Source of the DNA: Caenorhabditis remanei
Taxonomy: Eukaryota; Nematoda; Chromadorea; Rhabditida; Rhabditidae
Reading direction: 5' to 3'
Assembly: GCF_010183535.1 (NCBI RefSeq)
Contig: NC_071332.1
Coordinates: 21,328,001 to 21,392,000 of the forward strand
Length of the DNA stretch: 64,000 nucleotides
Within the stretch, counting starts at the first letter, position 1. Each line of letters begins with the position of its first letter. Below are positions 37,969-59,252 of this stretch, piece by piece. The notes below the pieces were generated by a model. That model worked only from the letters and a program-made list of their open reading frames with translations, had not been told where the DNA came from and ran no database searches. The position numbers and the translations under genes are program-made.

Positions 37969-39153
37969 TAGCGACTTAGGACAACTGAAAATTCATCATC
38001 GATACAAAATCTCTTGCAACTCCGCCCCCTTTCTACCTATCTCAAATTTGAAAACTGATTTAGAATCCTCACGTGTTCAACTTTCCAGTCATATACATAT
38101 ACAATTCAATATGTGAAGTTTTGACTCACTATAATAAGAACCAGGTTGAGCACAAAGAGGAAATCAGGAAGGCTTGCGGATTCCATGCCGGTGATTGGGT
38201 TTTTGCGCTGAAAAAGAATTTAAATTTTTTTTTTAATCGAGTAGCCCGGAATTGAGCCCCGTATTTCAGCTCCCTTTTGACCTATCTCAAATCTGAAAAC
38301 GGATTCAGAATCCTCATAGTTTCAGCTTTTCATTCATATGCAACACTTTTCAGGAACTCACATAGAAAAGGAGATAGCAAATAGGATAGCGACTTAGGAT
38401 AGCTAAAAATTCATTCTCTGCACTAATCGTCTTGTAACTCCGCCACCTTTCTACCTACTTGAAATTTGAAAACTGATTTAGAATCCTCACATGTTCAACT
38501 TTCCAGTCATATACATATACAATTAAATTTCAAAAACTCACATAGAAAAGCGACGCCGCATAGGTATAGATAGTCCTGGGAAGTCAAGTTGAAGGTTTGA
38601 CGCATGCTGTCACTGGAAATGGGTTCTATTATCCGGTTTTTAATATCAAAAATTTCAATTATACAATTTTAACTAAGCTTTCATTGTAAAAATGTTATAA
38701 AATTTTGAAAAAAAAACACAGAAAACGGACAAAAACAAGGTTAGTATTGTGTATTCCTCGTGGACAAGTGAAAATTTAGGTTTTTAGAATTTGAACAGTT
38801 TTTGATCGTTTTTTTGTTGGTTTTTTTGCAGAACTTTTAATAAAATGTGTGTATCCATGCAGAACTAACAAAAAATAGCAAAACATAGGCAGAAATACGA
38901 TGAAATTCCACTGATAATGGTCAGAAACAGACCTAGGGCGGTTGGTTACCAGTTTTGTACCTAAAACCCCGTTCTAGATAGTTGTAATCCTTCCCAGTTT
39001 CATTCATTTCATTCCACATCCGTTATCATCTTCAGAAAGTTTGCTCCACTGGCAATTCTTAATTTCTACGTGACCCCGCCTCACCCCCCCCCTTGTTATT
39101 CCACGTATCTTCTTTTTCAAGTTTTTCTTATTCCTTTATTTTCCCTCATAAAA
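37969..39153. other. Intergenic DNA built largely from an inverted copy of the Str gene
   Basis: About 38105-38640 is the inverted partial copy described separately. The rest contains CTCCGCCCCCTTTCTACCTA and GATTCAGAATCCTCA repeats, which also occur in the Str introns and in introns of the next gene, and a poly-C tract before the next start codon. Confidence 0.6.
38130..38612 (-). pseudogene. Inverted copies of Str exons 3 and 4
   Basis: 38130-38207 is an inverted copy of exon 4 (37443-37520), still 78 nt with its CTCAC donor complement. 38542-38612 is an inverted copy of exon 3 (37089-37155) but has four extra bases, which shifts the frame. Flanking intron sequence is also copied. No other exons are present. 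Confidence 0.8.
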
Positions 39154-40378: not shown

Positions 40379-40384
40379 CACTGG
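40379..40384. other. Left 6-bp target-site duplication CACTGG
   Basis: CACTGG directly precedes the element and is repeated at 59247-59252 after it. Six base pairs is the target duplication length of Maverick/Polinton elements. Confidence 0.9.
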
Positions 40385-41126
40385 AGTAGTGTTCGGGACA
40401 AAAATTCTCCCCACCCGATGAGTCATCATGAGATAAGATCTCCGAAAATGAAGGGATACACCGTGTCGGAGATAAGATCTATGGAGGGATACCCCGTAGC
40501 GGAGATTACAATCTCCGCGGTTATGATAAGTTATGATAAGTCATTATGATAATTAATTATGATTATTAATTATGATTATTAATTATGATTTTTTTGAATG
40601 AAATTTCAAATTTTTTCACAATTTATTAAAATTTTGCACATTTTTAGATTTTGGCTAGAAATTTCAGAAAAAGAAAACTTTTTACGCCTCAGGAAAAAAG
40701 TTTTTGCATTTTTGAAATTTTCACTTCATAATGCTCATGGCCTAGAAATCCAATTGTTAGGCCGAGTGCAATTGTAGGTATAATGCCCAGGTAAGTTCCT
40801 TCCAGTCGGGGATACTGTACATTATTGAAGAGACAGGAGAGACGACAGAGAAATGTACGAACGGGCACCGACACAAGATTTTTAAATTATTCTCGTGTAG
40901 GTGGTCGAGATTAAAATCTAACTCTTCACGTTGAAAAAAAAAAGACAAATCATTCAATGTCAAAAATCTGTTCGTGAGCCGACACAAGATTTTAAATGTT
41001 TCTTGTGTCGGAGGTCGAGATTAAAATCTAACTCTTCACGTTGAAAAAAAAAAAAGACAAATCATTCAATGTCAAAAAAAAAGACTGTTCGTGACCATGA
41101 AAATCTTTATTGCAAAAAAAACTTAT
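40385..41126. repeat. Left terminal region with sub-repeats, no gene
   Basis: The terminal 170 bp contain repeated GGAGATAAGATCT and GGGATACACCGTGTCGGAG units, then AATTATGATTATTAATTATG repeats. Two direct copies of about 112 bp follow (about 40871-40982 and 40983-41096; shared GTCGAGATTAAAATCTAACT and ACAAATCATTCAATGTCAAA). Such subterminal repeats are often binding sites for replication or transposition proteins; that role is inferred. Confidence 0.65.
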
Positions 41127-41734
41127 TCAATCCAAAATTCTTGCATATCCTCTATTGAGGTCCACACATCGATTACACATTTTAAGAATCATTCGACCTT
41201 CTTCAAACGTCCAGACCAGCTTTCCAGCACAACACTTCATCACAGCTACATCCAGCTTCCCTTTTGACTTGTCAAGAACTCTGAGTGGTGTATCTGAAAT
41301 ATCAAGATGAATAAAAACTTTGCATACAGAAAACAAGTACCGTCAAAGCTAATTTCTCCAAATTGTTCTCGCGAAACCTTCTTTGGTTTTGTTGCACGAG
41401 TTCTCGAGACGGGAACTTTCTTGACAGGCGTTTCCAAGAGTTGTTTTCTACTCTTGAAGAGCTTCTTTATCATTGACACTGCAAAAGACAATAATTTTAA
41501 AGCAACTGGCGAATCGTTCTTACCTGAATCTTTTTGCGAGTCTGGAATCGATTCTCCGTCATGTTCAGAAACAAATTGGCTTGATGGAGGGGAATATTGG
41601 TCGAGAGGAAGCGGAATTTGCAAAGGCTGAACCGTCGGGAAAACAGTAGGACTTGGGTTCAGGAAATCCATGAGAGCAATAAAAACAGTCACCGGTTTGT
41701 ATCGAGGAAAAAAAGCAAGAATGAAGCTTTTCAT
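41127..41734 (-). CDS. 171-aa basic protein of unknown function (left copy)
   Basis: Exons 41524-41734, 41341-41478 and 41127-41293; 516 nt in one frame. It starts MKSFILAFFPRYKP, a hydrophobic, possibly membrane-active N-terminus. A Pro/Ser-rich linker (PSPTVFPTVQPLQIPLPLDQ) follows, then a strongly basic segment (MIKKLFKSRK, VKKVPVSRTRATKPKKVSRE) resembling a nuclear-localisation or nucleic-acid-binding stretch. A compact C-terminal part has four cysteines or paired hydrophobics (DVAVMKCCAGKLVWTFEEGR, LKMCNRCVDLNRGY). A TATA-like TTATACAC lies about 60 bp upstream. No family recognised. Neighbour of the F-box gene, same strand. Confidence 0.7.
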
Positions 41735-42141
41735 AACTTTACAGGAAACAATGCTGACGTCAGAAAGTGGGCGGAGCCAAAAGTGTATAAAAAATCTAAT
41801 ACACCAAAAATATAACTTTTTGCTGTATGCAGAATAATATGAATTCTCTGAGATCAATTAGAACCTATTCTGCGCATACAATGTGTACAAAGCCGTCAAG
41901 AAGATTCATATTTGAATTTCGAACGGACATGTCAAACAGCACCTCATTTATAATTCATTGTGAATAAAGTTCTCGTTATAAAAAATTTATTCTTTCACTA
42001 TGGAAACACTCAATCAGCACATGCGACAAGTGAGGAAGCAGATTCAAATGAGAAAACATACAAAGAGTGCTGTATTTGAGCACATCTACTCATAGATCTA
42101 CTTTTTTGTCCGGTGACGTTTTTCTCTATCAATTAACAATT
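41735..42141. other. Spacer between the basic-protein and F-box genes (left)
   Basis: Non-coding. It contains the upstream region of the basic-protein gene and the 3' flank of the F-box gene, including the 13-bp segment that is missing in the right arm. Mirror: about 57503-57896. Confidence 0.6.
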
Positions 42142-43135
42142 TCATCTGATTGTCATACACATGTACATGTCCTCCACTTGTTTTATTCTTTCAATACTTG
42201 CTTTGACCCCATTGCGGTTTTCAATGTAGATGGTCTTCATTCGGTATAGTGGTCTGCAATATTGTAAACGGTTACTCTAGAGATTGTCTACTCATACTTT
42301 ATGGGAATCTTACACTCGCAATCTTCATACACTGACATACCAGCCAAAAGTTTTTGCCATCGTAGACTGACGTAAAACTCTATTCTACGTAATTTGTCAA
42401 AGCAACCATCATACCATCTTCTCAAGAACTGATTCATATCTTCATTGGAGATTACCCCATACAGATGTATGTTGGCACAATTCATATCCAGTAAATTCCT
42501 CAATGTTCCTGGTATGATGATTTCATCCAAATCAAACACCCTCTCATAAACCAACTCGTCTAGAGTGTCCAAGTCTACAGATAATGCTTTTGAGACTTGA
42601 ACACTCTCCAAAAATCGAGTCACACTGAAACTTTTGACAGGATTCTTCAAAGAGATTGAACATTTCTCAACGAATATGTTGGATAACCATTTGGTAACGT
42701 ATTCAACTTCTTCTTGTTTTTCAAGATTAAGACTCAGTCTACCAATACTTTGGATAGAGCACAAATCCATCAATTGGTTTGCAATTTCAAATCCATCAAA
42801 CAGAACGTTATTCGACCAGCGACAAAGACTGTTCTTTCTAGATCTTTCGTTCATTGCACCAACGCTTATGATACCCTTTACTTCTGGACACGCGTTGCGG
42901 TAAATGGTTATATCGAATTCATTATCGCTATCAAACTCTATTGACAACGAGTATTGTCGTCTTATTGCACTTTTGACATAGCCTGATGCTTTCTTTGAGC
43001 AAAATGATAATGCGACCCTGCAAAAACATCAAGTTTTTTCTGCTAAAAAATACAAACTTACATGTCATGTGGACTCATCTGCAGAAGAATATTTTTCAAC
43101 ACGAGGTATGGGAAGCACAAAAGTGGGAGAGGCAT
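42142..43135 (-). CDS. F-box/FBA_2 protein carried by the element (left copy), 301 aa
   Basis: Exons 43062-43135, 42298-43017 and 42142-42253; 906 nt, all phases agree. F-box PLPLLCFPYLVLKNILLQMS, continuing MVALSFCSKKASGYV. The FBA_2 domain is recognisable from CRWSNNVLFDGFEIANQLM, SIGRLSLNLE, VISNEDMNQFLRRWYDG, and a last exon LYRMKTIYIENRNGVKASIE. This is a typical Caenorhabditis fbxb-type gene, presumed SCF ubiquitin-ligase adaptor, so it is host-derived cargo in a mobile element. No disabling change is seen. Upstream it has two similar ~230-bp blocks (see 43150-44110). Confidence 0.88.
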
Positions 43136-43149
43136 CGCAATGGTGTAAG

Positions 43150-44110
43150 ATGTTGAACTCCACATAAAAAATCAAAGTCACAGACGTAAATGTGTTGTAG
43201 AACTGCTAAATGGCTAAAAATATATCTTTAACATCAGAGGCATATGGAAGCTGACAGTATCATACCGTTCGTTTGAATTATTTGAATAAATGTTTCACCT
43301 ATCTCAGATCAGATCTATAGATATCCTGGCGCCCTCATTAGTGCACAAAAGAACGCTACGCACATGTCAATGATTGACACCTCCCTTCTCCCCCCTCAGG
43401 GACAATTAGGTCATTTAAAAGGAGGCTAATATGCGAAATCTTCATTTTTCCGTCAAGAAACTAGAAATGGAACCCGTTCCAAACAACTTTTTCTTTAAGA
43501 TGTCGAACTCCACATAAAAAATCAAAGTCACAGATGAGTTGTGGAAATGGTAAATGACTGAAAATATAACTTTTACTTGAATCAGACGTTGTCAAGGAAT
43601 AACAAATGTTGATCTAAAACTGTCATAGAACAAAAGTGAAGTACTATGAAATAGTAATGTTGCAAGTCTCTAAAAACAGCACATTCATATTCCTTTACCC
43701 CTAACTCTAGCAACACTCCAACACCACCGACCGGTAAATGAGTTGCCGCGGTGAGCGGTGACGAATGTTCGGTCTACCTAAACGGTGGTGAGTAAAACGA
43801 ACCCCTTGCAAAGACTGTTCCATACTATTCTTTCTACAGAACAAGGACAGTTTTATGTTAAAAAAATGGGTATCTGAATAGATACCTATAATAATCCTAA
43901 ATGAAACCACACTCAATGCGTTCAAATCAATTTCATTACTCCTTTCTTTTCCACTTTTTGGTATATTGCCAGAATAATTCCACCTTTTAAAAAATTATTT
44001 GAATACTGTTTTCACATATCTCTGATCGCATCTATAGATACCCCTCATTACAGGCGCCCTCCTAAGTGCGCACAAAGAAAGCGCTACGCACATGTCAGTG
44101 ATTTATGACA
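43150..44110. repeat. Duplicated upstream module of the F-box gene (left arm)
   Basis: Two diverged direct copies. CTCCACATAAAAAATCAAAG occurs at about 43160 and 43507. The block ending ACGCTACGCACATGTCA, with TCTATAGATA and GGCGCCCTC, occurs at about 43300-43380 and 44012-44100. Mirror copies are in the right arm (about 55535-56495). No gene lies between; a hairpin module sits at 43719-43805. Confidence 0.6.
43719..43805 (+). repeat. Hairpin-prone module, copy 1 of 6
   Basis: Core CACCACCGACCGG ... GCCGCGGTGAGCGGTGACGA ... CCGGTCTACC ... GGTGGTGAGTAAAACGAACC. The outer CACCAC/GTGGTG and inner CCGG/CCGG-type segments can pair. This copy is the most diverged of the three in the left arm. Confidence 0.75.
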
Positions 44111-44129
44111 TTTTCTCCACTAGGTTTTT

Positions 44130-44465
44130 TTTTTCAGATGAATATTATTGAATCAACAAACTTTTCCGAGAAAAAACAAAGATATTCCCAGTGGATAGAA
44201 TGTTGAAGCGACATCTCCAGATTATACGTCATCACATGTGAAAAGCTTACCAAATTATAAGTGTAAAAAATATACAACAAAAACTTTGGATGGTACCTTC
44301 TTCATAGTTCGCAACGTGGAATTGACACATATGGATGAGGAGAAGCAACACTTGATGGATAAAATAAAAACAAATGTGGAAGATGACGGAGAGACGCGAG
44401 AAGGGGAGCATGAGGAAAGAGAAACGCATGACAAATTTTCAAATTGCGCGCTGTCAATGTTTCCG
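44130..44465 (+). pseudogene. Coding-like remnant, function unknown
   Basis: From about 44200 the plus strand is open for ~110 codons (LPNYKCKKYTTKTLDGTFFI, RNVELTHMDEEKQHLMDKIK, then acidic). The upstream part is in other frames with stops, and no splice partner was found. It may be a decayed exon. Mirror: about 55179-55514. Confidence 0.3.
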
Positions 44466-44934
44466 CACCGGTTTTTCTTCTTCTCTCTCGTTTCCACACC
44501 GGTTTTCTTCTTCTCGACAAGGCGGAGCTTGGAAGCACAATAAATAAGACACAACAAGGAGGCGATTTCTTCATTCTAAGAAACACTACTGAATGCGTTT
44601 CGCCCGATTATGTATGATTATTTTTGAATTCTAATTTTATGTTTTTTTTTGCACTGGCGGTTTCGAACAATGGAGGTTGGAGGTTAGTTCTGGATCAGTT
44701 CCATTAAAAGAATAACAATATTTTACTAGACTTCAAAAAAAAACTTTTTCATGTTAGTAATAATGGACAAAGTAAATCCCGTAAAAAATATTTCATATAG
44801 GTGCACTCAGTTGCAAGAGTTTGGTGCACAATATCTCAATCTCATACTAAAGACTGGAATTAAAGCAATTTCTTTTTCTGCGCTTCAAGTCTTTCAAGTT
44901 CACTGTTATTCCAACTAAGACCTTTATTTCAGAC

Positions 44935-45717
44935 ATGTCCTCCTCTCAAAAGCTGTTCAATCACGTTCCAACTACCACCTTCGTCAAAACCGAGGATTCT
45001 GTCGATTCTGAGAATTTCCCAGTCAGGGCGATTCCATACACCAGAGAAGAGCTCTTTTCTCGGATGGAGTTCAGATGAAATCCCCGAGTTCCAAGGGTCA
45101 TCGTCACCAATCAAATCAAAGAGGAGTCTCAAAACTCATTCGATGCCTTTGCGCCAAATGAGTTGTTGGATTCAGCTCCTGAAGTCACCCCAGCCATCGA
45201 TGGACATCAAGAAGACCTCTTCAACTCAGAATTGGTAGAAAGAACACTTGAAATGTTCATGGATGCTGCGAGCAGAGGACAAACTCTCAATTTGGTATAT
45301 TATTTTTTCTTTTTCATTAATTTTTTGACAAGACCAATTTATTGCTGAACACTCTCACTGATTTTTTCATTTAGACACTTTCAGTTTCTATCATTCAGTA
45401 CTTGTTTTTTTTGTTTTGCAACTGTCAATTGATAAGTATCACTATCATTGAGTCATCCCTCCCCATATAATATTATTAAGAATAAGTGAATACACCATAA
45501 TATTCATTCAATTTTACAACTTTAGCTATCAATAATTCATTTTTCAGAATCCGGATCCAGAAGAAGTCTTGACTGATGAGGACCTGTAGGAGGAAGATGC
45601 CTCAGCCAGGATACCGATCCGGATTATTATCCAGATACGCAAGAGCAGCGAGACCGTCCATCAGACTTCAGAATCCCACGTTCCGCCTCACGTGACCCAC
45701 TCGATTTGGACTATTAA
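44935..45717 (+). pseudogene. Broken acidic ORF (left arm)
   Basis: The ATG at 44935 directly follows TTTATTTCAGAC, a good trans- or cis-splice acceptor. The frame (MSSSQKLFNHVPTTTFVKTE) has an in-frame TGA at 45076, then stays open (LFNSELVERTLEMFMDAASR) to a GTATAT donor at 45295. The second exon (from 45548) has a TAG at 45587 and needs a frame change to reach its acidic end DPLDLDY. It is acidic and Ser/Pro-rich, with no known domain. The same stops occur in both arms, so decay preceded palindrome formation. Confidence 0.5.
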
Positions 45718-46213
45718 AAAATATTGAAATTTATAATTAAAATACATTCTGTATGTTTATAAATTTAATTTGAAAAACGATCTTATTTGCATCACTTCAC
45801 CAGATTCTAACTAGCAATAAATTATTGTGAAAAGCAACAACTGTTAATTTTCTCACTGTTGAATTTTTAAAATTCATCCAAGACATTTCCACTTCTTCAG
45901 CCTACAATCCGCAGTGTACACCGGGAGAGGTCCGAATATTCATATTCGGAGGCATTTGCTACTAGAGAATGGAAATGTAGTTCCCATCTGGTTTGGATTC
46001 CTTCTTGGCTTGTCATTTTTTGGTTTGTCATTGACTTCTTTCTCCTTCACATGACTAATTGCGCTTTCGTGTTGTGATTGAAAACATTGATTGTGCAACA
46101 ACGAGAGCGATCGAAATGTTCTAATTGGACAAAACACAGAGAAAATATTGCAAAATAATGATAAAAGCGTATGGCAAGAGAAGAATTCAAAAAAAAAGGA
46201 AAACGAGAACGAT

Positions 46214-46639
46214 CCACGAATTCAACTCTACACTGCTCTGGAAAGAATTGCATCTGACCGTCTCATTTATTGTGGTAACGTGTATTTTTATAAAAAGCGA
46301 GAAAATGAACATCTTTCAGACACGGATTCTGTTATATTCCGTCAGGACAGAGGAACAGATTTACTCGGAGATTTGAAAGGAGAAAGTCTCAGAATGATGA
46401 CCAACGAGATTGCATCGGGTTGTGAATTGGTAAAAGTGGTCACGATAGCATCAAAAGTATATGGAACACTGGGTAGAAGAACTGCCACAGGAGAAGAAGA
46501 CTATTTCGTCAAGGCAAAAGGGGTGACTCTAAACTCGGAAACGGCCAAAAAAGTGAATTTTGATATGGTCCCCTTTCATACAGTCTTGTACGTTGGCAAG
46601 TTTCATTCTCTTTGTTCTCAAGCACGAGCAAGCAGATAG
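46214..46639 (+). pseudogene. Family-B DNA polymerase C-terminal fragment (left arm)
   Basis: Two exons, 46214-46274 and 46320-46639, join to give RIQLYTALERI ... YCDTDSVIF, the palm motif C (DTDS) of B-family polymerases. A run resembling GDLKGE, then VKAKGVTLNSETAKKVNFD follows, as in the region after motif C of protein-primed PolB of Maverick elements. The exonuclease domain, motifs A and B and the thumb were not found, so it is a fragment. The intron falls exactly between tyrosine-cysteine and the first aspartate of the motif. Its presence identifies the element's ancestry; it cannot encode an active enzyme. Confidence 0.75.
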
Positions 46640-46760
46640 GGCAGAGCAACAGAAAGAGAAAGTAGCCTCTGTTTTTTTTTTACCGAAAATCACGCTGCCC
46701 CTTTTCCATCTTTTTCAAATCTTCTCCTATGGGCATGCATAAATAAAGAAGAGAAGAGGT

Positions 46761-47477
46761 CTACTGGCAGGGTTGAAAGAAGACGAAAACCGGAAGAATA
46801 CGTGCAACAGAAAGTAAAAAAAGTAAATTTATTGCTTCAATGTTTTGAGATGCATGAATAATAAAGGAGAAGTTAAAACAAATGAGAAAAAAAAAACAAG
46901 AATGAACATTGAAGTTCGATGTGAAGCCAGGGTACGATTGCATCAAATCCACAATCGGCATGTCATCCGGATGGAACAGTGTGGACTTCACTGAAATTAA
47001 TTAATAAGATTAATTATGCGAATACTACAACTCACTTTCGGTGACCATATAAAAACTTGGCTCTTTGTTTGTTCCCTGGAGACTTTTGACACCTTTTGAT
47101 GCACCCAGAGCAGAGTAACGGCATCCATGGTCATAAGAAACCATCTTCAAACTAAAAAAATTGAAATTATATTTTCATATGGATAAAAGCAAGGTTACTT
47201 GATTCCCGAAGTATCGAGCAGGTAGTGGACACAGTTTCCAACGGTGATAACATTCTTGCTGAAAAACAAAATATAATGTTAGTACAGTTTGTTATGAACG
47301 TACTTCGAATATGCTGGTCCACTGAGCAAAAAACAGATAACAAGCAGAAGCAGAGAATAAAATATAATATAAAGGAATTAATTGAATTTCAAAATAATCA
47401 GAAAAAGGGTTTTGACGACCGCTCACATAGTCATCTTGGCACACATATCATCTTCAGCTTTCGAACGGAAGACATTT
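46761..47477 (-). CDS. Multi-exon coding remnant of unknown function (left arm)
   Basis: Five segments with matched splice phases: 47427-47477, 47304-47321, 47199-47258, 47036-47151 and 46761-46990. Predicted pieces include FRSKAEDDMCAKM, NVITVGNCVHYLLDTSGINL, MVSYDHGCRYSALGASKGVK and LFHPDDMPIVDLMQSYPGFT. The 5' start was not found, and the last exon runs into hydrophobic low-complexity sequence, so both ends are uncertain. The fold (invariant-looking Cys, His and Gly) is not recognised. It is convergent with the polymerase fragment. Confidence 0.45.
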
Positions 47478-47689
47478 CTGAAATTAAAGATGTTCGTTGA
47501 ATCGACATTGAATTTGAAAGAGTTCTATGCGCAGAAAAGAAGTGATAATCAGAGACAAAAACATAGATTCCGAGTGTCCGAAAGAATAAATGTGCAGCTG
47601 TTCTAAAAGAAAATTAATGCATTTACCCAATCAGCCAAAAACTCGACTTGCAGGTAGAAGAAAAAAACGTTACCTACTTTACTAACCCT

Positions 47690-47787
47690 AAAACATCCCA
47701 ACACCACCGACCGGTAAATGAGTTGCCGCGGTGAGCGGTGACGAATGTCCGGTCTACCTTAACTGTGGTGAGTAAAACGAACCCCCC
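47690..47787 (+). repeat. Hairpin-prone module, copy 2 of 6
   Basis: As copy 1, with additional conserved 5' flank (GTTACCTACTTTACTAACCC). GTGGTGAGTAAAACGAACCC at its right end resembles a 5' splice site. Confidence 0.8.
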
Positions 47788-47799
47788 TTGCCGATATCA

Positions 47800-49516
47800 T
47801 ATACATTCTCAATGACTGGTAGCGAGTTAGGTCAACTATGTGAGCTCACTAGAGGAAAACACTCGTAGAGGAAACATTAGAAAAAAGAGCGGTCAGTCAA
47901 TTTATGGCACATGTTAGCTACCGTGACACGGGTTTTTTTTTTGTCTGAACAGGAAAAAAAAACAGTTCATGATTTCCGTTGTCTAAAAAAAGAATACATC
48001 GAGATGGGTAAAACACTGAGACTTTTTAGAAATCTGTGCTATCAAAACTGTTACTCACCTTCAAAAAACAATTAGAAATAATCCAAGAATTCAAAAATAA
48101 TCAATAATATAGTACATCGTCTCGACTCCTATTCAAAAAGAAGTCTGAATAATTATTTTTTGCACTCTAAAAAACAGAAGAATTAACCAACTCACCTAAG
48201 AATATTCCTCAATGCAAGAAGAATGAATGAGAAGATGAGCGGATGGTAGGATTGTCCAGTCTCCGTGTTCTCTGTTGTATCACGACGTTCCCGCCCACTC
48301 TCACTTTTTTTTTCACATATTGAAAATGTGTTCGATACATGTGGATGAGTATACGTCTCGTGTTCTCTGGGTCTCTCCAACTCTCTACTCTATACATCTA
48401 TCAGTTCAAAGTGACTGTACATGTCTGTATCAAAATGAATGTTTAACATGTCGCTGACATCCAGATGCAAGACTGTATGGAAAAAAAACTTTCAATATTT
48501 ATCACGCCGATACTGATAATTTCACACTGTATATACTGCATAGACTACAAATCCCATCTTATACACGATTACGAGTATTAATAAATTTCTTTTCAAAAAT
48601 TATTTTCTTCACTACAAATAAAAATACAACTTTATAAAAAACTGTTAGTGTCTTAAATTCCAACTACGCACCCCCCACACCAAAAACAAAAACTTGGGAT
48701 TACAACATAATCAGCTAGCGCAAACTATTTGCAATTCAATACACATTTCAATGTAATTCATTGCAAAATTCTGAACAACCTATAAACACCACAAAACTCG
48801 TATCATTTTCAAGAAAAATCATGACACGGCCCCTCATTTTAAACAAACCACCCCATTTTCAGACACCACGTATGTATTTTGTGCAATCCCATCAAATTTA
48901 TAAGCTACCATACGTATAGTTTGTGGTACGTTCAGAACATAACTGTTAAGTTTGTCATTTGTATCTAACAAGTTATAAGCTACATCTGAATGCCCGGGAA
49001 CACCATTTTTTTTTCACGACACAAACTTTTATTGTTCAACCATGTTCATAACCCCAGTCAAAGTGTCTTTTTTTTGCGGGAATTCACACATGGTCTCCCA
49101 TTTTGATCTTCGCCAACCCGGGGGTCGGCATGTTTTATCGGAAAATCTCCGCGCCTCACATCAATGGACTTCTTTTCGATTCCTCTCTTGACTAATTTTT
49201 TTGTTCCCTGACACTACACTTTGCAAAACATTCTTATAACGACGATTGTATTTTTTCATAAGTTTTTTTCGATTTGCTCTCAAGTACATTTCAAGTCACT
49301 TTTTAGGACTGATTAAAGTAATGAAATGTTTTCTCGAGTAATGATTTGACTTCAGAGTTGTAAAAAATCTTTACCATCATCACTAAAAAATATTGACTGA
49401 TGGATATCCTTTCCTCAAACACTTGAGACAATGTCAACGTAACATCCTTTACTTTTTGTGTCAGTAAGGGTACGACTTCTCAATGCTATGTCTTCGTGTT
49501 TTAATATTTGTGCAGG
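47800..49516. other. Inner part of the left arm without a recognised gene
   Basis: It contains short overlapping ORFs of about 60 codons around 48192-48457 without domains, a poly-T/A-rich stretch, and unique DNA (GGGGGTCGGCATGTTTTATC region near 49130). Mirror: about 50128-51845. Confidence 0.55.
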
Positions 49517-49640
49517 GAGGGTTCGTTTTACTCACCACAGTTAAGGTAGACCGGACATTCGTCACCGCTCACCGCGGCAACTCATTTACCGGTCGGTGGT
49601 GTTGGGATGTTTCAGGGTTAGTAAAGTAGGTAACGTTTTT
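49517..49640 (-). repeat. Hairpin-prone module, copy 3 of 6
   Basis: Inverted relative to copies 1 and 2. It lies about 80 bp from the unpaired centre. Confidence 0.8.
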
Positions 49641-49720
49641 TTCTTTCTTTCTTTTTTTAACACTTGTTAGGATAAAAAATCACAGTAATCAATGTTTATT
49701 GTTAATTATTAATAAGTCGT

Positions 49721-49923
49721 GAAAAGTAATTAGATCAAAAACATAATCAAGAAGTATACACATGTACTTATATCAAATTGATGTCTATTTTCAATAATTT
49801 CTAGACTTATACTGAAAAATCCAATAAACATTATAATACTAACATTTCAGTATGTGGGGGGAGCTAACTGTGTGAGGAATAAACGAATGTTCGCATTCTA
49901 TGTCACCTATCTATATTCGCTTT
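49721..49923. other. 203-bp unpaired centre of the palindrome
   Basis: This unique AT-rich sequence (starts GAAAAGTAATTAGATC, ends ATATTCGCTTT) is not repeated in the arms. It could be the loop of a snap-back intermediate from which the palindrome was copied. No ORF or known motif. Confidence 0.9.
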
Positions 49924-50003
49924 ACGACTTATTAATAATTAACAATAAACATTGATTACTGTGATTTTTTATCCTAACAAGTGTTAAAAAAAGAAAGAAA
50001 GAA

Positions 50004-50127
50004 AAAAACGTTACCTACTTTACTAACCCTGAAACATCCCAACACCACCGACCGGTAAATGAGTTGCCGCGGTGAGCGGTGACGAATGTCCGGTCTACCT
50101 TAACTGTGGTGAGTAAAACGAACCCTC
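50004..50127 (+). repeat. Hairpin-prone module, copy 4 of 6
   Basis: Mirror of copy 3 on the right side of the centre. Copies 3 and 4 are head-to-head around the 203-bp loop. Confidence 0.8.
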
Positions 50128-51845
50128 CCTGCACAAATATTAAAACACGAAGACATAGCATTGAGAAGTCGTACCCTTACTGACACAAAAAGTAAAGGAT
50201 GTTACGTTGACATTGTCTCAAGTGTTTGAGGAAAGGATATCCATCAGTCAATATTTTTTAGTGATGATGGTAAAGATTTTTTACAACTCTGAAGTCAAAT
50301 CATTACTCGAGAAAACATTTCATTACTTTAATCAGTCCTAAAAAGTGACTTGAAATGTACTTGAGAGCAAATCGAAAAAAACTTATGAAAAAATACAATC
50401 GTCGTTATAAGAATGTTTTGCAAAGTGTAGTGTCAGGGAACAAAAAAATTAGTCAAGAGAGGAATCGAAAAGAAGTCCATTGATGTGAGGCGCGGAGATT
50501 TTCCGATAAAACATGCCGACCCCCGGGTTGGCGAAGATCAAAATGGGAGACCATGTGTGAATTCCCGCAAAAAAAAGACACTTTGACTGGGGTTATGAAC
50601 ATGGTTGAACAATAAAAGTTTGTGTCGTGAAAAAAAAATGGTGTTCCCGGGCATTCAGATGTAGCTTATAACTTGTTAGATACAAATGACAAACTTAACA
50701 GTTATGTTCTGAACGTACCACAAACTATACGTATGGTAGCTTATAAATTTGATGGGATTGCACAAAATACATACGTGGTGTCTGAAAATGGGGTGGTTTG
50801 TTTAAAATGAGGGGCCGTGTCATGATTTTTCTTGAAAATGATACGAGTTTTGTGGTGTTTATAGGTTGTTCAGAATTTTGCAATGAATTACATTGAAATG
50901 TGTATTGAATTGCAAATAGTTTGCGCTAGCTGATTATGTTGTAATCCCAAGTTTTTGTTTTTGGTGTGGGGGGTGCGTAGTTGGAATTTAAGACACTAAC
51001 AGTTTTTTATAAAGTTGTATTTTTATTTGTAGTGAAGAAAATAATTTTTGAAAAGAAATTTATTAATACTCGTAATCGTGTATAAGATGGGATTTGTAGT
51101 CTATGCAGTATATACAGTGTGAAATTATCAGTATCGGCGTGATAAATATTGAAAGTTTTTTTTCCATACAGTCTTGCATCTGGATGTCAGCGACATGTTA
51201 AACATTCATTTTGATACAGACATGTACAGTCACTTTGAACTGATAGATGTATAGAGTAGAGAGTTGGAGAGACCCAGAGAACACGAGACGTATACTCATC
51301 CACATGTATCGAACACATTTTCAATATGTGAAAAAAAAAGTGAGAGTGGGCGGGAACGTCGTGATACAACAGAGAACACGGAGACTGGACAATCCTACCA
51401 TCCGCTCATCTTCTCATTCATTCTTCTTGCATTGAGGAATATTCTTAGGTGAGTTGGTTAATTCTTCTGTTTTTTAGAGTGCAAAAAATAATTATTCAGA
51501 CTTCTTTTTGAATAGGAGTCGAGACGATGTACTATATTATTGATTATTTTTGAATTCTTGGATTATTTCTAATTGTTTTTTGAAGGTGAGTAACAGTTTT
51601 GATAGCACAGATTTCTAAAAAGTCTCAGTGTTTTACCCATCTCGATGTATTCTTTTTTTAGACAACGGAAATCATGAACTGTTTTTTTTTCCTGTTCAGA
51701 CAAAAAAAAAACCCGTGTCACGGTAGCTAACATGTGCCATAAATTGACTGACCGCTCTTTTTTCTAATGTTTCCTCTACGAGTGTTTTCCTCTAGTGAGC
51801 TCACATAGTTGACCTAACTCGCTACCAGTCATTGAGAATGTATAT
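50128..51845. other. Inner part of the right arm without a recognised gene
   Basis: Mirror of 47800-49516. A possible non-coding exon ends AACATTGAGGAATATTC-like sequence near 51450 followed by GTGAGT, which could be a 5' exon of the remnant at 52167; unproven. Confidence 0.5.
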
Positions 51846-51856
51846 GATATCGGCAA

Positions 51857-51954
51857 GGGGGGTTCGTTTTACTCACCACAGTTAAGGTAGACCGGACATT
51901 CGTCACCGCTCACCGCGGCAACTCATTTACCGGTCGGTGGTGTTGGGATGTTTT
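51857..51954 (-). repeat. Hairpin-prone module, copy 5 of 6
   Basis: Mirror of copy 2. Confidence 0.8.
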
Positions 51955-52166
51955 AGGGTTAGTAAAGTAGGTAACGTTTTTTTCTTCTACCTGCAAGTCG
52001 AGTTTTTGGCTGATTGGGTAAATGCATTAATTTTCTTTTAGAACAGCTGCACATTTATTCTTTCGGACACTCGGAATCTATGTTTTTGTCTCTGATTATC
52101 ACTTCTTTTCTGCGCATAGAACTCTTTCAAATTCAATGTCGATTCAACGAACATCTTTAATTTCAG

Positions 52167-52883
52167 AAATGTCTTCCGTTCGAAAGCTGAAGATGATATG
52201 TGTGCCAAGATGACTATGTGAGCGGTCGTCAAAACCCTTTTTCTGATTATTTTGAAATTCTAATAATTCCTTTATATTATATTTTATTCTCTGCTTCTGC
52301 TTGTTATCTGTTTTTTGCTCAGTGGACCAGCATATTCGAAGTACGTTCATAACAAACTGTACTAACATTATATTTTGTTTTTCAGCAAGAATGTTATCAC
52401 CGTTGGAAACTGTGTCCACTACCTGCTCGATACTTCGGGAATCAAGTAACCTTGCTTTTATCCATATGAAAATATAATTTCAATTTTTTTAGTTTGAAGA
52501 TGGTTTCTTATGACCATGGATGCCGTTACTCTGCTCTGGGTGCATCAAAAGGTGTCAAAAGTCTCCAGGGAACAAACAAAGAGCCAAGTTTTTATATGGT
52601 CACCGAAAGTGAGTTGTAGTATTCGCATAATTAATCTTATTAATTAATTTCAGTGAAGTCCACACTGTTCCATCCGGATGACATGCCGATTGTGGATTTG
52701 ATGCAATCGTACCCTGGCTTCACATCGAACTTCAATGTTCATTCTTGTTTTTTTTTTCTCATTTGTTTTAACTTCTCCTTTATTATTCATGCATCTCAAA
52801 ACATTGAAGCAATAAATTTACTTTTTTTACTTTCTGTTGCACGTATTCTTCCGGTTTTCGTCTTCTTTCAACCCTGCCAGTAG
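52167..52883 (+). CDS. Multi-exon coding remnant of unknown function (right arm)
   Basis: Mirror image of 46761-47477: exons 52167-52217, 52323-52340, 52386-52445, 52493-52608 and 52654-52883. AATAAA at about 52809 suggests transcription could end inside the last segment. Clean splice sites argue for a once-real gene. Confidence 0.45.
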
Positions 52884-53004
52884 ACCTCTTCTCTTCTTTA
52901 TTTATGCATGCCCATAGGAGAAGATTTGAAAAAGATGGAAAAGGGGCAGCGTGATTTTCGGTAAAAAAAAAACAGAGGCTACTTTCTCTTTCTGTTGCTC
53001 TGCC

Positions 53005-53430
53005 CTATCTGCTTGCTCGTGCTTGAGAACAAAGAGAATGAAACTTGCCAACGTACAAGACTGTATGAAAGGGGACCATATCAAAATTCACTTTTTTGGC
53101 CGTTTCCGAGTTTAGAGTCACCCCTTTTGCCTTGACGAAATAGTCTTCTTCTCCTGTGGCAGTTCTTCTACCCAGTGTTCCATATACTTTTGATGCTATC
53201 GTGACCACTTTTACCAATTCACAACCCGATGCAATCTCGTTGGTCATCATTCTGAGACTTTCTCCTTTCAAATCTCCGAGTAAATCTGTTCCTCTGTCCT
53301 GACGGAATATAACAGAATCCGTGTCTGAAAGATGTTCATTTTCTCGCTTTTTATAAAAATACACGTTACCACAATAAATGAGACGGTCAGATGCAATTCT
53401 TTCCAGAGCAGTGTAGAGTTGAATTCGTGG
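53005..53430 (-). pseudogene. Family-B DNA polymerase C-terminal fragment (right arm)
   Basis: Mirror copy of 46214-46639, exons 53370-53430 and 53005-53324, identical in predicted sequence. Both copies lack the rest of the polymerase. Confidence 0.75.
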
Positions 53431-53925
53431 ATCGTTCTCGTTTTCCTTTTTTTTTGAATTCTTCTCTTGCCATACGCTTTTATCATTATTTTGCAATATT
53501 TTCTCTGTGTTTTGTCCAATTAGAACATTTCGATCGCTCTCGTTGTTGCACAATCAATGTTTTCAATCACAACACGAAAGCGCAATTAGTCATGTGAAGG
53601 AGAAAGAAGTCAATGACAAACCAAAAAATGACAAGCCAAGAAGGAATCCAAACCAGATGGGAACTACATTTCCATTCTCTAGTAGCAAATGCCTCCGAAT
53701 ATGAATATTCGGACCTCTCCCGGTGTACACTGCGGATTGTAGGCTGAAGAAGTGGAAATGTCTTGGATGAATTTTAAAAATTCAACAGTGAGAAAATTAA
53801 CAGTTGTTGCTTTTCACAATAATTTATTGCTAGTTAGAATCTGGTGAAGTGATGCAAATAAGATCGTTTTTCAAATTAAATTTATAAACATACAGAATGT
53901 ATTTTAATTATAAATTTCAATATTT

Positions 53926-54709
53926 TTTAATAGTCCAAATCGAGTGGGTCACGTGAGGCGGAACGTGGGATTCTGAAGTCTGATGGACGGTCTCGCTGCT
54001 CTTGCGTATCTGGATAATAATCCGGATCGGTATCCTGGCTGAGGCATCTTCCTCCTACAGGTCCTCATCAGTCAAGACTTCTTCTGGATCCGGATTCTGA
54101 AAAATGAATTATTGATAGCTAAAGTTGTAAAATTGAATGAATATTATGGTGTATTCACTTATTCTTAATAATATTATATGGGGAGGGATGACTCAATGAT
54201 AGTGATACTTATCAATTGACAGTTGCAAAACAAAAAAAACAAGTACTGAATGATAGAAACTGAAAGTGTCTAAATGAAAAAATCAGTGAGAGTGTTCAGC
54301 AATAAATTGGTCTTGTCAAAAAATTAATGAAAAAGAAAAAATAATATACCAAATTGAGAGTTTGTCCTCTGCTCGCAGCATCCATGAACATTTCAAGTGT
54401 TCTTTCTACCAATTCTGAGTTGAAGAGGTCTTCTTGATGTCCATCGATGGCTGGGGTGACTTCAGGAGCTGAATCCAACAACTCATTTGGCGCAAAGGCA
54501 TCGAATGAGTTTTGAGACTCCTCTTTGATTTGATTGGTGACGATGACCCTTGGAACTCGGGGATTTCATCTGAACTCCATCCGAGAAAAGAGCTCTTCTC
54601 TGGTGTATGGAATCGCCCTGACTGGGAAATTCTCAGAATCGACAGAATCCTCGGTTTTGACGAAGGTGGTAGTTGGAACGTGATTGAACAGCTTTTGAGA
54701 GGAGGACAT
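53926..54709 (-). pseudogene. Broken acidic ORF (right arm)
   Basis: Mirror image of 44935-45717 with the same stop codons and frame change. Confidence 0.5.
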
Positions 54710-55838
54710 GTCTGAAATAAAGGTCTTAGTTGGAATAACAGTGAACTTGAAAGACTTGAAGCGCAGAAAAAGAAATTGCTTTAATTCCAGTCTTTAGTAT
54801 GAGATTGAGATATTGTGCACCAAACTCTTGCAACTGAGTGCACCTATATGAAATATTTTTTACGGGATTTACTTTGTCCATTATTACTAACATGAAAAAG
54901 TTTTTTTTTGAAGTCTAGTAAAATATTGTTATTCTTTTAATGGAACTGATCCAGAACTAACCTCCAACCTCCATTGTTCGAAACCGCCAGTGCAAAAAAA
55001 AACATAAAATTAGAATTCAAAAATAATCATACATAATCGGGCGAAACGCATTCAGTAGTGTTTCTTAGAATGAAGAAATCGCCTCCTTGTTGTGTCTTAT
55101 TTATTGTGCTTCCAAGCTCCGCCTTGTCGAGAAGAAGAAAACCGGTGTGGAAACGAGAGAGAAGAAGAAAAACCGGTGCGGAAACATTGACAGCGCGCAA
55201 TTTGAAAATTTGTCATGCGTTTCTCTTTCCTCATGCTCCCCTTCTCGCGTCTCTCCGTCATCTTCCACATTTGTTTTTATTTTATCCATCAAGTGTTGCT
55301 TCTCCTCATCCATATGTGTCAATTCCACGTTGCGAACTATGAAGAAGGTACCATCCAAAGTTTTTGTTGTATATTTTTTACACTTATAATTTGGTAAGCT
55401 TTTCACATGTGATGACGTATAATCTGGAGATGTCGCTTCAACATTCTATCCACTGGGAATATCTTTGTTTTTTCTCGGAAAAGTTTGTTGATTCAATAAT
55501 ATTCATCTGAAAAAAAAAACCTAGTGGAGAAAATGTCATAAATCACTGACATGTGCGTAGCGCTTTCTTTGTGCGCACTTAGGAGGGCGCCTGTAATGAG
55601 GGGTATCTATAGATGCGATCAGAGATATGTGAAAACAGTATTCAAATAATTTTTTAAAAGGTGGAATTATTCTGGCAATATAACAAAAAGTGGAAAAGAA
55701 AGGAGTAATGAAATTGATTTGAACGCATTGAGTGTGGTTTCATTTAGGATTATTATAGGTATCTATTCAGATACCCATTTTTTTAACATAAAACTGTCCT
55801 TGTTCTGTAGAAAGAATAGTATGGAACAGTCTTTGCAA

Positions 55839-55925
55839 GGGGTTCGTTTTACTCACCACCGTTTAGGTAGACCGAACATTCGTCACCGCTCACCGCGGCA
55901 ACTCATTTACCGGTCGGTGGTGTTG
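55839..55925 (-). repeat. Hairpin-prone module, copy 6 of 6
   Basis: Mirror of copy 1, with the same diverged positions (AAACGGTGGTG complement). Confidence 0.75.
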
Positions 55926-56508
55926 GAGTGTTGCTAGAGTTAGGGGTAAAGGAATATGAATGTGCTGTTTTTAGAGACTTGCAACATTACTATTTCATAG
56001 TACTTCACTTTTGTTCTATGACAGTTTTAGATCAACATTTGTTATTCCTTGACAACGTCTGATTCAAGTAAAAGTTATATTTTCAGTCATTTACCATTTC
56101 CACAACTCATCTGTGACTTTGATTTTTTATGTGGAGTTCGACATCTTAAAGAAAAAGTTGTTTGGAACGGGTTCCATTTCTAGTTTCTTGACGGAAAAAT
56201 GAAGATTTCGCATATTAGCCTCCTTTTAAATGACCTAATTGTCCCTGAGGGGGGAGAAGGGAGGTGTCAATCATTGACATGTGCGTAGCGTTCTTTTGTG
56301 CACTAATGAGGGCGCCAGGATATCTATAGATCTGATCTGAGATAGGTGAAACATTTATTCAAATAATTCAAACGAACGGTATGATACTGTCAGCTTCCAT
56401 ATGCCTCTGATGTTAAAGATATATTTTTAGCCATTTAGCAGTTCTACAACACATTTACGTCTGTGACTTTGATTTTTTATGTGGAGTTCAACATCTTACA
56501 CCATTGCG

Positions 56509-57502
56509 ATGCCTCTCCCACTTTTGTGCTTCCCATACCTCGTGTTGAAAAATATTCTTCTGCAGATGAGTCCACATGACATGTAAGTTTGTATTTTTTA
56601 GCAGAAAAAACTTGATGTTTTTGCAGGGTCGCATTATCATTTTGCTCAAAGAAAGCATCAGGCTATGTCAAAAGTGCAATAAGACGACAATACTCGTTGT
56701 CAATAGAGTTTGATAGCGATAATGAATTCGATATAACCATTTACCGCAACGCGTGTCCAGAAGTAAAGGGTATCATAAGCGTTGGTGCAATGAACGAAAG
56801 ATCTAGAAAGAACAGTCTTTGTCGCTGGTCGAATAACGTTCTGTTTGATGGATTTGAAATTGCAAACCAATTGATGGATTTGTGCTCTATCCAAAGTATT
56901 GGTAGACTGAGTCTTAATCTTGAAAAACAAGAAGAAGTTGAATACGTTACCAAATGGTTATCCAACATATTCGTTGAGAAATGTTCAATCTCTTTGAAGA
57001 ATCCTGTCAAAAGTTTCAGTGTGACTCGATTTTTGGAGAGTGTTCAAGTCTCAAAAGCATTATCTGTAGACTTGGACACTCTAGACGAGTTGGTTTATGA
57101 GAGGGTGTTTGATTTGGATGAAATCATCATACCAGGAACATTGAGGAATTTACTGGATATGAATTGTGCCAACATACATCTGTATGGGGTAATCTCCAAT
57201 GAAGATATGAATCAGTTCTTGAGAAGATGGTATGATGGTTGCTTTGACAAATTACGTAGAATAGAGTTTTACGTCAGTCTACGATGGCAAAAACTTTTGG
57301 CTGGTATGTCAGTGTATGAAGATTGCGAGTGTAAGATTCCCATAAAGTATGAGTAGACAATCTCTAGAGTAACCGTTTACAATATTGCAGACCACTATAC
57401 CGAATGAAGACCATCTACATTGAAAACCGCAATGGGGTCAAAGCAAGTATTGAAAGAATAAAACAAGTGGAGGACATGTACATGTGTATGACAATCAGAT
57501 GA
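56509..57502 (+). CDS. F-box/FBA_2 protein carried by the element (right copy), 301 aa
   Basis: Exons 56509-56582, 56627-57346 and 57391-57502, the mirror image of the left copy with the same predicted protein. Donors GTAAGT and GTATGA; acceptors TTGCAG. Having two intact inverted copies means that transcription reading from one arm could pair with the other, or that dosage is doubled. Confidence 0.88.
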
Positions 57503-57896
57503 AATTGTTAATTGATAGAGAAAAACGTCACCGGACAAAAAAGTAGATCTATGAGTAGATGTGCTCAAATACAGCACTCTTTGTATGTTTTCTCATTTGA
57601 ATCTGCTTCCTCACTGATTGAGTGTTTCCATAGTGAAAGAATAAATTTTTTATAACGAGAACTTTATTCACAATGAATTATAAATGAGGTGCTGTTTGAC
57701 ATGTCCGTTCGAAATTCAAATATGAATCTTCTTGACGGCTTTGTACACATTGTATGCGCAGAATAGGTTCTAATTGATCTCAGAGAATTCATATTATTCT
57801 GCATACAGCAAAAAGTTATATTTTTGGTGTATTAGATTTTTTATACACTTTTGGCTCCGCCCACTTTCTGACGTCAGCATTGTTTCCTGTAAAGTT

Positions 57897-58504
57897 ATGA
57901 AAAGCTTCATTCTTGCTTTTTTTCCTCGATACAAACCGGTGACTGTTTTTATTGCTCTCATGGATTTCCTGAACCCAAGTCCTACTGTTTTCCCGACGGT
58001 TCAGCCTTTGCAAATTCCGCTTCCTCTCGACCAATATTCCCCTCCATCAAGCCAATTTGTTTCTGAACATGACGGAGAATCGATTCCAGACTCGCAAAAA
58101 GATTCAGGTAAGAACGATTCGCCAGTTGCTTTAAAATTATTGTCTTTTGCAGTGTCAATGATAAAGAAGCTCTTCAAGAGTAGAAAACAACTCTTGGAAA
58201 CGCCTGTCAAGAAAGTTCCCGTCTCGAGAACTCGTGCAACAAAACCAAAGAAGGTTTCGCGAGAACAATTTGGAGAAATTAGCTTTGACGGTACTTGTTT
58301 TCTGTATGCAAAGTTTTTATTCATCTTGATATTTCAGATACACCACTCAGAGTTCTTGACAAGTCAAAAGGGAAGCTGGATGTAGCTGTGATGAAGTGTT
58401 GTGCTGGAAAGCTGGTCTGGACGTTTGAAGAAGGTCGAATGATTCTTAAAATGTGTAATCGATGTGTGGACCTCAATAGAGGATATGCAAGAATTTTGGA
58501 TTGA
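57897..58504 (+). CDS. 171-aa basic protein of unknown function (right copy)
   Basis: Mirror copy with exons 57897-58107, 58153-58290 and 58338-58504. Open frame and splice sites are the same as in the left copy. The ATG chosen is the first after the TATA-like sequence at about 57841; a 41-residue upstream extension is open but would begin before the TATA-like sequence. A later ATG (MDFLNPS) is an alternative start. Preservation of a spliced frame suggests the gene was functional when the palindrome formed. Confidence 0.7.
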
Positions 58505-59246
58505 ATAAGTTTTTTTTGCAATAAAGATTTTCATGGTCACGAACAGTCTTTTTTTTTGACATTGAATGATTTGTCTTTTTTTTTTTTCAACGTGAAGAGT
58601 TAGATTTTAATCTCGACCTCCGACACAAGAAACATTTAAAATCTTGTGTCGGCTCACGAACAGATTTTTGACATTGAATGATTTGTCTTTTTTTTTTCAA
58701 CGTGAAGAGTTAGATTTTAATCTCGACCACCTACACGAGAATAATTTAAAAATCTTGTGTCGGTGCCCGTTCGTACATTTCTCTGTCGTCTCTCCTGTCT
58801 CTTCAATAATGTACAGTATCCCCGACTGGAAGGAACTTACCTGGGCATTATACCTACAATTGCACTCGGCCTAACAATTGGATTTCTAGGCCATGAGCAT
58901 TATGAAGTGAAAATTTCAAAAATGCAAAAACTTTTTTCCTGAGGCGTAAAAAGTTTTCTTTTTCTGAAATTTCTAGCCAAAATCTAAAAATGTGCAAAAT
59001 TTTAATAAATTGTGAAAAAATTTGAAATTTCATTCAAAAAAATCATAATTAATAATCATAATTAATTATCATAATTAATTATCATAATGACTTATCATAA
59101 CTTATCATAACCGCGGAGATTGTAATCTCCGCTACGGGGTATCCCTCCATAGATCTTATCTCCGACACGGTGTATCCCTTCATTTTCGGAGATCTTATCT
59201 CATGATGACTCATCGGGTGGGGAGAATTTTTGTCCCGAACACTACT
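58505..59246. repeat. Right terminal region with sub-repeats, no gene
   Basis: Mirror image of 40385-41126, with the two ~112-bp direct repeats at about 58535-58760 and the AATTAATTATCATAATTAAT tract near 59045-59095. AATAAA for the adjacent gene lies at about 58520. Confidence 0.65.
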
Positions 59247-59252
59247 CACTGG
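59247..59252. other. Right 6-bp target-site duplication CACTGG
   Basis: Second copy of the host hexamer; the interrupted exon resumes with TCCTGATAGAG at 59253. Confidence 0.9.

What the first reader, a model, noticed from the sequence alone, without database searches (positions are those of the whole stretch)
40385..59246. An 18.9-kb Maverick-derived element that is one giant palindrome
Seen: two 9.3-kb arms, reverse complements of each other, around a 203-bp centre; ends AGTAGTG/CACTACT; perfect 6-bp duplication CACTGG. Known: Mavericks/Polintons have 6-bp duplications, AG termini and inverted repeats usually below about 1 kb, and use protein-primed PolB replication. Inference: a linear replication intermediate snapped back or switched template and copied itself into an inverted dimer, which then integrated as a unit. 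An element whose whole length is inverted repeat is not a form I know to be described for Mavericks.
Basis: partly seen in the sequence, partly recalled or inferred. Interest (0 to 1): 0.92.

Follow-up and report, generated by a model that had tools for sequence, protein, structure and literature searches.

The report
Giant palindromic Mavericks in a nematode
In this roundworm genome a virus-like jumping element exists as an 18.9-kb mirror image of itself, the same mirror form sits at other sites, and mirror-image copies of its relatives' DNA-copying gene turn up at about twenty places, which points to an overlooked inherited form of these elements rather than a one-off accident.

Summary
Window 40385-59246 (18,862 bp) is two 9.3-kb arms, 99.8% identical, around a 203-nt centre, with AGTAGTG ends and a perfect CACTGG duplication. 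It is Maverick-derived: conventional relatives in the same genome (Caenorhabditis remanei) share the ends and 6-bp duplications and encode PolB, integrase, an A32-type ATPase and a jelly-roll capsid protein. The arm comes from the PolB half; the capsid half is absent beyond the shared end.

It is not a one-off. A 99.55%-identical palindrome sits on chromosome 3 with its own duplication. A third, more diverged, shares the centre. A fourth, from another Maverick family and read only in part, also folds the PolB half. Of 76 detected PolB copies, 40 lie in 20 mirrored convergent pairs. Arms change together: 20 substitutions symmetric, 4 private. Dimers match full-length relatives in length (18.86-18.87 versus 18.75-18.96 kb), although 4,485 of 9,351 arm positions do not align to the third palindrome.

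Best reading: an old, heritable, capsid-less palindromic Maverick form mobilised in trans as a unit. Arm homogenisation is shown; packaging in a helper's capsid is inferred.

The parts
40379..40384 (.). left copy of the 6-bp target-site duplication, CACTGG
59247..59252 (.). right copy of the 6-bp target-site duplication, CACTGG
40385..49720 (+). arm A of the palindrome (9,336 nt of clean pairing; weak pairing runs on to 49735)
49721..49923 (.). centre (203 nt; 173 nt if weak pairing is counted); homologous centre in the chromosome 3 copy and, at 88% over the matched stretch, in the chromosome 2 copy
49924..59246 (-). arm B of the palindrome (9,323 nt; lacks 13 nt present in arm A at 42016-42028)
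40385..40977 (+). terminal segment corresponding to the ~590-bp terminal inverted repeat of conventional relatives (mirror image at the other end)
41246..41857 (-). open frame next to the end; a stretch of about 160 residues is almost unchanged in an ORF of the conventional relative (L013:951-1484); no Pfam match; mirror copy 57774-58385 (+)
42288..43028 (-). FBA_2 exon of an F-box gene; lies where the conventional relative has a PIF1-helicase-like ORF; mirror copy 56616-57356 (+)
43497..48562 (.). middle of arm A (5,066 bp) in the place of a 5,119-bp PolB-bearing middle of the chromosome 2 palindrome; 855 of 5,066 positions still align to that arm; holds pieces similar to sequences elsewhere in the genome
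46215..46563 (.). remnant similar (94%) to the stretch at the 3' end of the PolB region of relatives
48956..49471 (.). remnant similar (77%) to the integrase ORF of the relative L013; no open frame of 70 aa or more on the integrase strand here
49512..49645 (+). M repeat near the centre; other copies in the element at 43701-43805 (-), 47658-47791 (-), 49999-50132 (-), 51853-51986 (+), 55839-55943 (+)

Best explanation
The element is a non-autonomous, palindromic Maverick derivative: two copies of the PolB-side half of a Maverick joined tail to tail around a short centre. It belongs to an old lineage that is copied and inserted as a complete dimer. Shown here: the palindrome; insertion as a unit at two sites with separate 6-bp duplications; a common centre in three loci; arms that change together; loss of PolB, integrase and capsid genes from this copy; many mirrored PolB loci in the genome. 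Inferred: it is replicated and integrated by proteins of conventional Mavericks or of PolB-bearing palindromes; its length stays close to the full-length element because the DNA is packaged in their capsid, as adenovirus vectors of half size are packaged as dimers; arms are kept identical by copying or repairing one arm from the other, in the replicating hairpin, on the chromosome, or both.
For: Palindrome with duplications at two sites and no inverted similarity of the flanks (the C3 flanks share four short direct-orientation matches several kb out). Same centre in three loci; the C2 arm end maps 15 nt past the point where clean pairing stops in C5. Conventional relatives C4:19300610-19319564 and C1:13155410-13174163 with the same ends and 6-bp duplications; in the first, PolB, PIF1, rve and A32-type matches and a double-jelly-roll capsid protein by fold. 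Arms of C5 and C3: 20 substitutions and 10 indels outside the centre are the same in both arms of a dimer and differ between dimers; private to one arm are 4 substitutions and one 13-nt deletion (C5) and a few single-base length changes (C3); no arm-specific difference outside the centre is shared by the dimers. Lengths: dimers 18,862, 18,874 and 18,867 (the last is left arm twice plus centre, before a 2,590-bp deletion) against 18,955 and 18,754; second-family dimer about 20.68 kb against 20.96 and 21.13 kb between homologous points. Mirrored PolB: 40 of 76 copies, 20 of 20 pairs convergent. Capsid-gene DNA within 18 kb of 0 of 19 mirrored loci (C40 left out) and of 10 of 36 unpaired copies, Fisher p = 0.010. 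A chimera (C4:24293135-24310790) joins 5.7 kb of palindrome-type arm (96%) to about 12 kb of conventional Maverick (99.96-100%), which suggests that both forms have been copied in one nucleus.
Against: No virion, extrachromosomal form or mobilisation was observed. The length match rests on one independent pair of dimers in family 1 (C5 and C3 are near-copies) and one partly read dimer in family 2. My advance prediction that this fourth palindrome would be 18.86 kb failed; the family-specific comparison was made afterwards. Two more family-2 copies come out at about 21.6 kb by extrapolation, so that family is not tight (arithmetic). The chimera is 17,656 bp. Outer PolB-to-PolB spacing in mirrored loci varies from 7.6 to 14.5 kb (C40 left out). 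With C40 counted the capsid contrast is 1 of 20 against 10 of 36, p = 0.076. Capsid absence rests on one DNA search with its own detection limit (weakest matches listed 65-66%), and some unpaired copies lie on short contigs. For 9 of 20 mirrored loci only one matched stretch supports the mirror. Ends and duplications were seen for C5, C3 and C2 only, and C2 has no direct duplication.
Confidence: 0.65

Rival explanations
1. Chromosomal gene conversion alone explains the arm identity. An inverted dimer formed once, spread by ordinary transposition, and arm-to-arm conversion on the chromosome keeps each copy symmetric; the equal lengths are chance and no capsid is involved.
For: The chromosome 2 palindrome lies in an unrelated foldback element and its flanks (about 803 bp) have also become inverted copies with no direct duplication left. 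Maintenance of inverted repeats in C. elegans, C. briggsae and C. remanei, with gene conversion as one proposed cause, is published (PMC1803023: abstract and 12 of 30 passages seen).
Against: Does not explain lengths equal to full-length relatives in family 1 although the middle 5 kb differs, nor why PolB loci are so often mirrored and convergent in 20 of 20 pairs.
Confidence: 0.25
2. One reading: a replication intermediate snapped back shortly before this insertion and the dimer is a one-off.
For: The palindrome and the single flanking duplication fit.
Against: Same centre in three loci, one diverged 6-7% over its longest shared stretch; 20 mirrored PolB loci.
Confidence: 0.04
3. Assembly artefact: fold-back reads or collapsed haplotypes made the mirror images.
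For: Contig C40 looks mirrored at contig scale (89 kb between PolB copies), so such errors may exist in this assembly.
Against: The palindrome ends at AGTAGTG with a direct duplication and without inverted flanks at two loci; arms differ by real changes. By the same rule 3 of 27 capsid-gene hits are mirrored (5 if the two C40 hits are added) against 40 of 76 PolB copies; p = 0.0002 for 3, 0.0006 for 4 and 0.003 for 5.
Confidence: 0.04
4. A conventional Maverick inserted first and a chromosomal inverted duplication then mirrored half of it in place.
For: Large inverted duplications centred on short inverted repeats are known (recalled).
Against: Such an event should mirror flanking DNA and should not leave a direct 6-bp duplication at both outer ends; it would have had to happen identically at two sites.
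Confidence: 0.02

Closest known systems
Maverick/Polinton elements of Caenorhabditis
   Same: AG termini, 6-bp target duplication, about 19-kb length; relatives with the same ends encode PolB, rve integrase, ATPase and jelly-roll capsid protein
   Different: This copy is a full-length palindrome without detected PolB, integrase frame or capsid gene and carries an F-box gene; conventional relatives have inverted ends of about 590 bp
Half-size helper-dependent adenovirus vectors packaged as dimers (PMC4189039, 12 of 13 passages seen)
   Same: Linear genome with inverted ends, without viral genes, brought near full length by dimer formation, including inverted dimers
   Different: Laboratory constructs with a helper virus; here integrated, inherited, with arms that stay alike; packaging not shown
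Foldback (FB/Galileo-type) transposons (recalled; a Galileo paper seen in a listing)
   Same: Most or all of the element is inverted repeat
   Different: Here Maverick termini, 6-bp duplications and Maverick gene remnants
Conserved inverted repeats of Caenorhabditis gene pairs (PMC1803023)
   Same: Arms stay alike while sequence drifts between species
   Different: Host gene pairs at fixed loci (2.2-kb arms in the example read), not mobile

Membership tests
Maverick/Polinton | 6-bp target-site duplication | tested here: met
   CACTGG here; direct 6-bp duplications at 5 of 6 family-1 loci whose two ends were found in inverted orientation; the C2 locus has none
Maverick/Polinton | AG...CT terminal inverted repeats | tested here: met
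   AGTAGTG/CACTACT, shared with PolB-bearing relatives
Maverick/Polinton | protein-primed PolB gene | tested here: not met
   No PF03175 match within the C5 element (91 of 322 candidates scored) and none in 10 of its ORFs; only a 349-bp remnant next to the PolB 3' region. Matches exist in the C2 and C4:3.92 palindromes and in conventional relatives
Maverick/Polinton | rve integrase gene | tested here: not met
   77% DNA remnant without an open frame of 70 aa on that strand; rve match in a 361-aa ORF of relative L013
Maverick/Polinton | capsid protein and packaging ATPase genes | tested here: not met
   The arm matches the capsid half L014 or L015 only in the outer ~600 bp, both strands. Hence filed as a non-autonomous Maverick derivative, not as a Maverick
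Satellite / helper-dependent element | lacks replication and capsid genes but keeps the helper's ends | tested here: met
Satellite / helper-dependent element | replicated and packaged by a helper | not testable with these tools
   length match is indirect only
Foldback transposon (FB/Galileo) | own type of ends and target duplications | tested here: not met
   Ends and 6-bp duplication are those of the PolB-bearing relatives; FB-type features are recalled

The most novel reading that the evidence does not exclude
Palindromic PolB elements are a distinct, widespread class of replicon: the whole genome is self-complementary, each displaced strand folds into one long hairpin that is copied from its single open end, and PolB is present in both arms. 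The PolB-less dimers at C5 and C3 are their parasites, held to capsid length by conventional Mavericks. About half of the detected PolB copies of this genome would belong to that class.
Probability: 0.3. Interest if true: 0.92.

Novelty: new variant of a known kind. Interest (0 to 1): 0.83.

Why it matters
If right, protein-primed mobile elements of animals have a stable, inherited inverted-dimer form, for which the closest case I found is a laboratory adenovirus vector. Two questions become testable: whether Mavericks are packaged in particles with a size limit, and how a 19-kb palindrome survives in a germ line while its arms stay identical. It also warns that repeat libraries and short-read assemblies of nematodes could fold or drop such elements.

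Tried and rejected
A functional reading of the F-box gene from dN/dS (0.74, 18 differences, C5 against C2) is inconclusive. A prediction that the fourth palindrome would end at 18.86 kb failed; it belongs to a longer family. The idea that the centre is a generic MITE was dropped: the M core occurs 19 times in the genome at up to 3 mismatches, all in palindromes, the chimera or a truncated arm. RNAalifold of 8 M copies shows a strong fold but 0 of 32 pairs with a double change, so no covariation support. Rfam: one match in the arm, below its gathering score. PDB sequence searches of three L014 ORFs gave nothing useful. PMC12368964 was checked for palindromic Mavericks (6 passages): it mentions Mavericks only by density at cod inversion breakpoints.
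Full report
What is there. The window is C5:21328001-21392000 of a 130.47-Mb assembly in 186 contigs. Of four proteins that match the element's F-box ORF, all are named as Caenorhabditis remanei; two bear GCK72 tags on contigs of 19,935,723 and 17,877,849 bases, the lengths of C2 and C3 here. The genome is thus C. remanei, by recall strain PX506. The element spans 40385-59246, with arms 40385-49720 and 49924-59246 and a 203-nt centre; weak pairing narrows the centre to 173 nt. The ends read AGTAGTG and the flanking CACTGG is direct and perfect. The flanks do not resemble each other.

Relatives. A search with the outer 617 bases found 29 matches; six pairs of them, the window's included, lie in inverted orientation 16-19 kb apart. 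I fetched the five other loci as separate halves plus three fragments. C4:19300610-19319564 (18,955 bp, GCCATT) and C1:13155410-13174163 (18,754 bp, GACGTT) are conventional: inverted ends of about 590 bp and an inside that is not inverted repeat. In C4:19.30 one half (L013) carries PIF1-like helicase, PolB and rve matches, the other (L014) an A32-type ATPase match and a 446-aa protein 72% identical to C. elegans F54H12.2. AlphaFold gives that protein mean pLDDT 74, and Foldseek puts it with capsid proteins of iridovirus, PBCV-1 and mavirus (best E 8e-16, TM-scores about 0.5-0.6). The C1 copy is 97-98% similar in its PolB half. They are Mavericks.

Other palindromes. C3:13391583-13410456 (18,874 bp, duplication CTTATT) is a palindrome with arms 99.946% identical, 99.55% identical to the window's arm. 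C2:16880632-16896908 has arms of 9,341 and 6,751 bp (a 2,590-bp deletion on one side), otherwise 99.8-99.9% identical. It is 93% similar to the window's arm over the longest shared stretch (2.5 kb) and 70-95% over others. Its centre matches the window's centre (88%), and its arm end maps to 49735, 15 nt past the end of clean pairing in the window, so I take the three dimers to share one origin. C4 around 3923443 is mirrored in each of four probed stretches, out to 3912700/3934175. It belongs to a second Maverick family: its outer stretch matches the PolB-side ends of C6:16.52 and C6:21.21 up to base 800, against base 624 on their capsid side.

Genome-wide. The PolB family search gave 131 matches (a lower bound: 91 of 322 candidates scored). 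I clustered them into 76 gene copies. Forty of 76 form 20 pairs with the same profile range and length on opposite strands within 100 kb; all 20 are convergent. In 11 of 20 pairs two or three stretches can be compared and their midpoints agree exactly; in 9 the mirror rests on one stretch. The C2 and C4:3.92 palindromes are among the 20; C5 and C3 hold no PolB match and are not. Four loci share a spacing of 13,137-13,180 bp, which suggests one mobile dimer family. C40 is mirrored at 89 kb and has a capsid-gene hit on either side; I treat it as a possible assembly effect. Capsid-gene DNA lies within 18 kb of 0 of the other 19 mirrored loci and of 10 of 36 unpaired copies (p = 0.010; with C40 1 of 20, p = 0.076). 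By the same rule 3 of 27 capsid-gene hits are mirrored (5 with the two C40 hits), against 40 of 76 PolB copies (p between 0.0002 and 0.003), so mirroring is not a general habit of the assembly.

What the arm is made of. Of 9,351 arm positions (to 49735) 4,866 align to the C2 arm and 2,841 to the conventional half L013. With the capsid halves L014 and L015 the arm shares only the outer 600 bp. Shared with C2 are mainly the outer 3.1 kb and parts of the inner 1.2 kb. The middle 5,066 bp stands in the place of 5,119 bp that carry PolB in C2 (855 positions still align). It holds stretches similar to C2:14866628-14868735 (77-82%) and to several C6 sites (88-91% at best). An F-box gene exon (FBA_2; F-box plus FBA_2 in annotated homologues) sits where L013 has the helicase-like ORF. 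Integrase survives as a 77% remnant.

How the arms behave. Aligning all four arms of C5 and C3: 20 substitutions and 10 indels outside the centre are the same in both arms of a dimer and differ between dimers (the listing's eleventh indel lies at the cut end of the slices); 12 of the 20 substitutions are in the outer 180 nt. Private to one arm are 4 substitutions and a 13-nt deletion, all in C5, and three single-base length changes in C3; at one further site the base inserted in C3 differs between its arms. No arm-specific difference outside the centre is shared by the two dimers. So arms are homogenised. The C2 locus indicates that this can happen on the chromosome, since its foldback-element flanks are symmetric too, and PMC1803023 reports such maintenance in the genus. 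Whether the replicating hairpin also homogenises arms is open.

Length. Family 1: 18,862, 18,874 and 18,867 (C2 reckoned before its deletion) against 18,955 and 18,754 for conventional copies; the chimera is 17,656. C5 and C3 are not independent. Family 2, between homologous points: about 20.68 kb for the dimer, 20.96 and 21.13 for two conventional copies, about 21.6 for two more by extrapolation. I had predicted 18.86 kb for the family-2 dimer and was wrong. Adenovirus vectors of 15 kb are packaged as direct and inverted dimers (PMC4189039, passages); a capsid limit is therefore my preferred, unproven, reason.

Novelty. Ten library searches were made, eight of them with Maverick or polinton among the terms (the others 62, 67). 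I saw 12-20 listed rows each, often of many more papers; no listed title or abstract start reports palindromic Mavericks. Two papers were asked for terms: PMC11071308 has no 'palindrom' or 'inverted repeat', PMC4028283 no 'inverted repeat' ('palindrom' not asked). The nematode polinton survey of 2023 is not held, and the 2023 work on Caenorhabditis Mavericks and gene transfer is recalled only, so prior notice there cannot be ruled out.

Noticed in passing
window 49512-49645 and five more copies; L046, L017, L018, L011, L026: The M repeat, about 80 nt nearly invariant and strongly folding, has 19 genome matches of its core at up to 3 mismatches, all in palindromes (C5, C3, C2, C4:3.92), the chimera C4:24.29 or a truncated arm on C6. 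Role unknown.
   Followed up: partly
G000:C4:24293135-24310790 (L011, L012): Chimeric Maverick with intact duplication: 5.7 kb of palindrome-type arm joined, with no microhomology that I can see, to about 12 kb 99.96-100% identical to C4:19.30; the capsid-gene end is lost.
   Followed up: partly
G000:C2:16879829-16897711: Palindromic Maverick nested in a foldback element; the flanks (about 803 bp) are mirrored too and there is no direct duplication.
   Followed up: partly
G000:C40 around 100909: Contig-scale mirror symmetry (89 kb between PolB copies, a capsid-gene hit on either side); possible assembly inverted duplication.
   Followed up: no
window 25429-26579, 29173-29803, 3011-3321, 14090-14389, 37069-38632: Several further self-inverted (foldback-like) stretches of 0.3-1.6 kb in the same window.
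   Followed up: no
window 6998-14074: Large direct repeats, copies about 93-99% identical.
   Followed up: no
window 63733-63979: 10-bp minisatellite GAGCATTCTA, about 25 copies.
   Followed up: no
G000:C6:21141774 and 21145510 (L020): The same Maverick end with 338 identical bp of end and flank occurs twice 3.7 kb apart beside a truncated arm.
   Followed up: no
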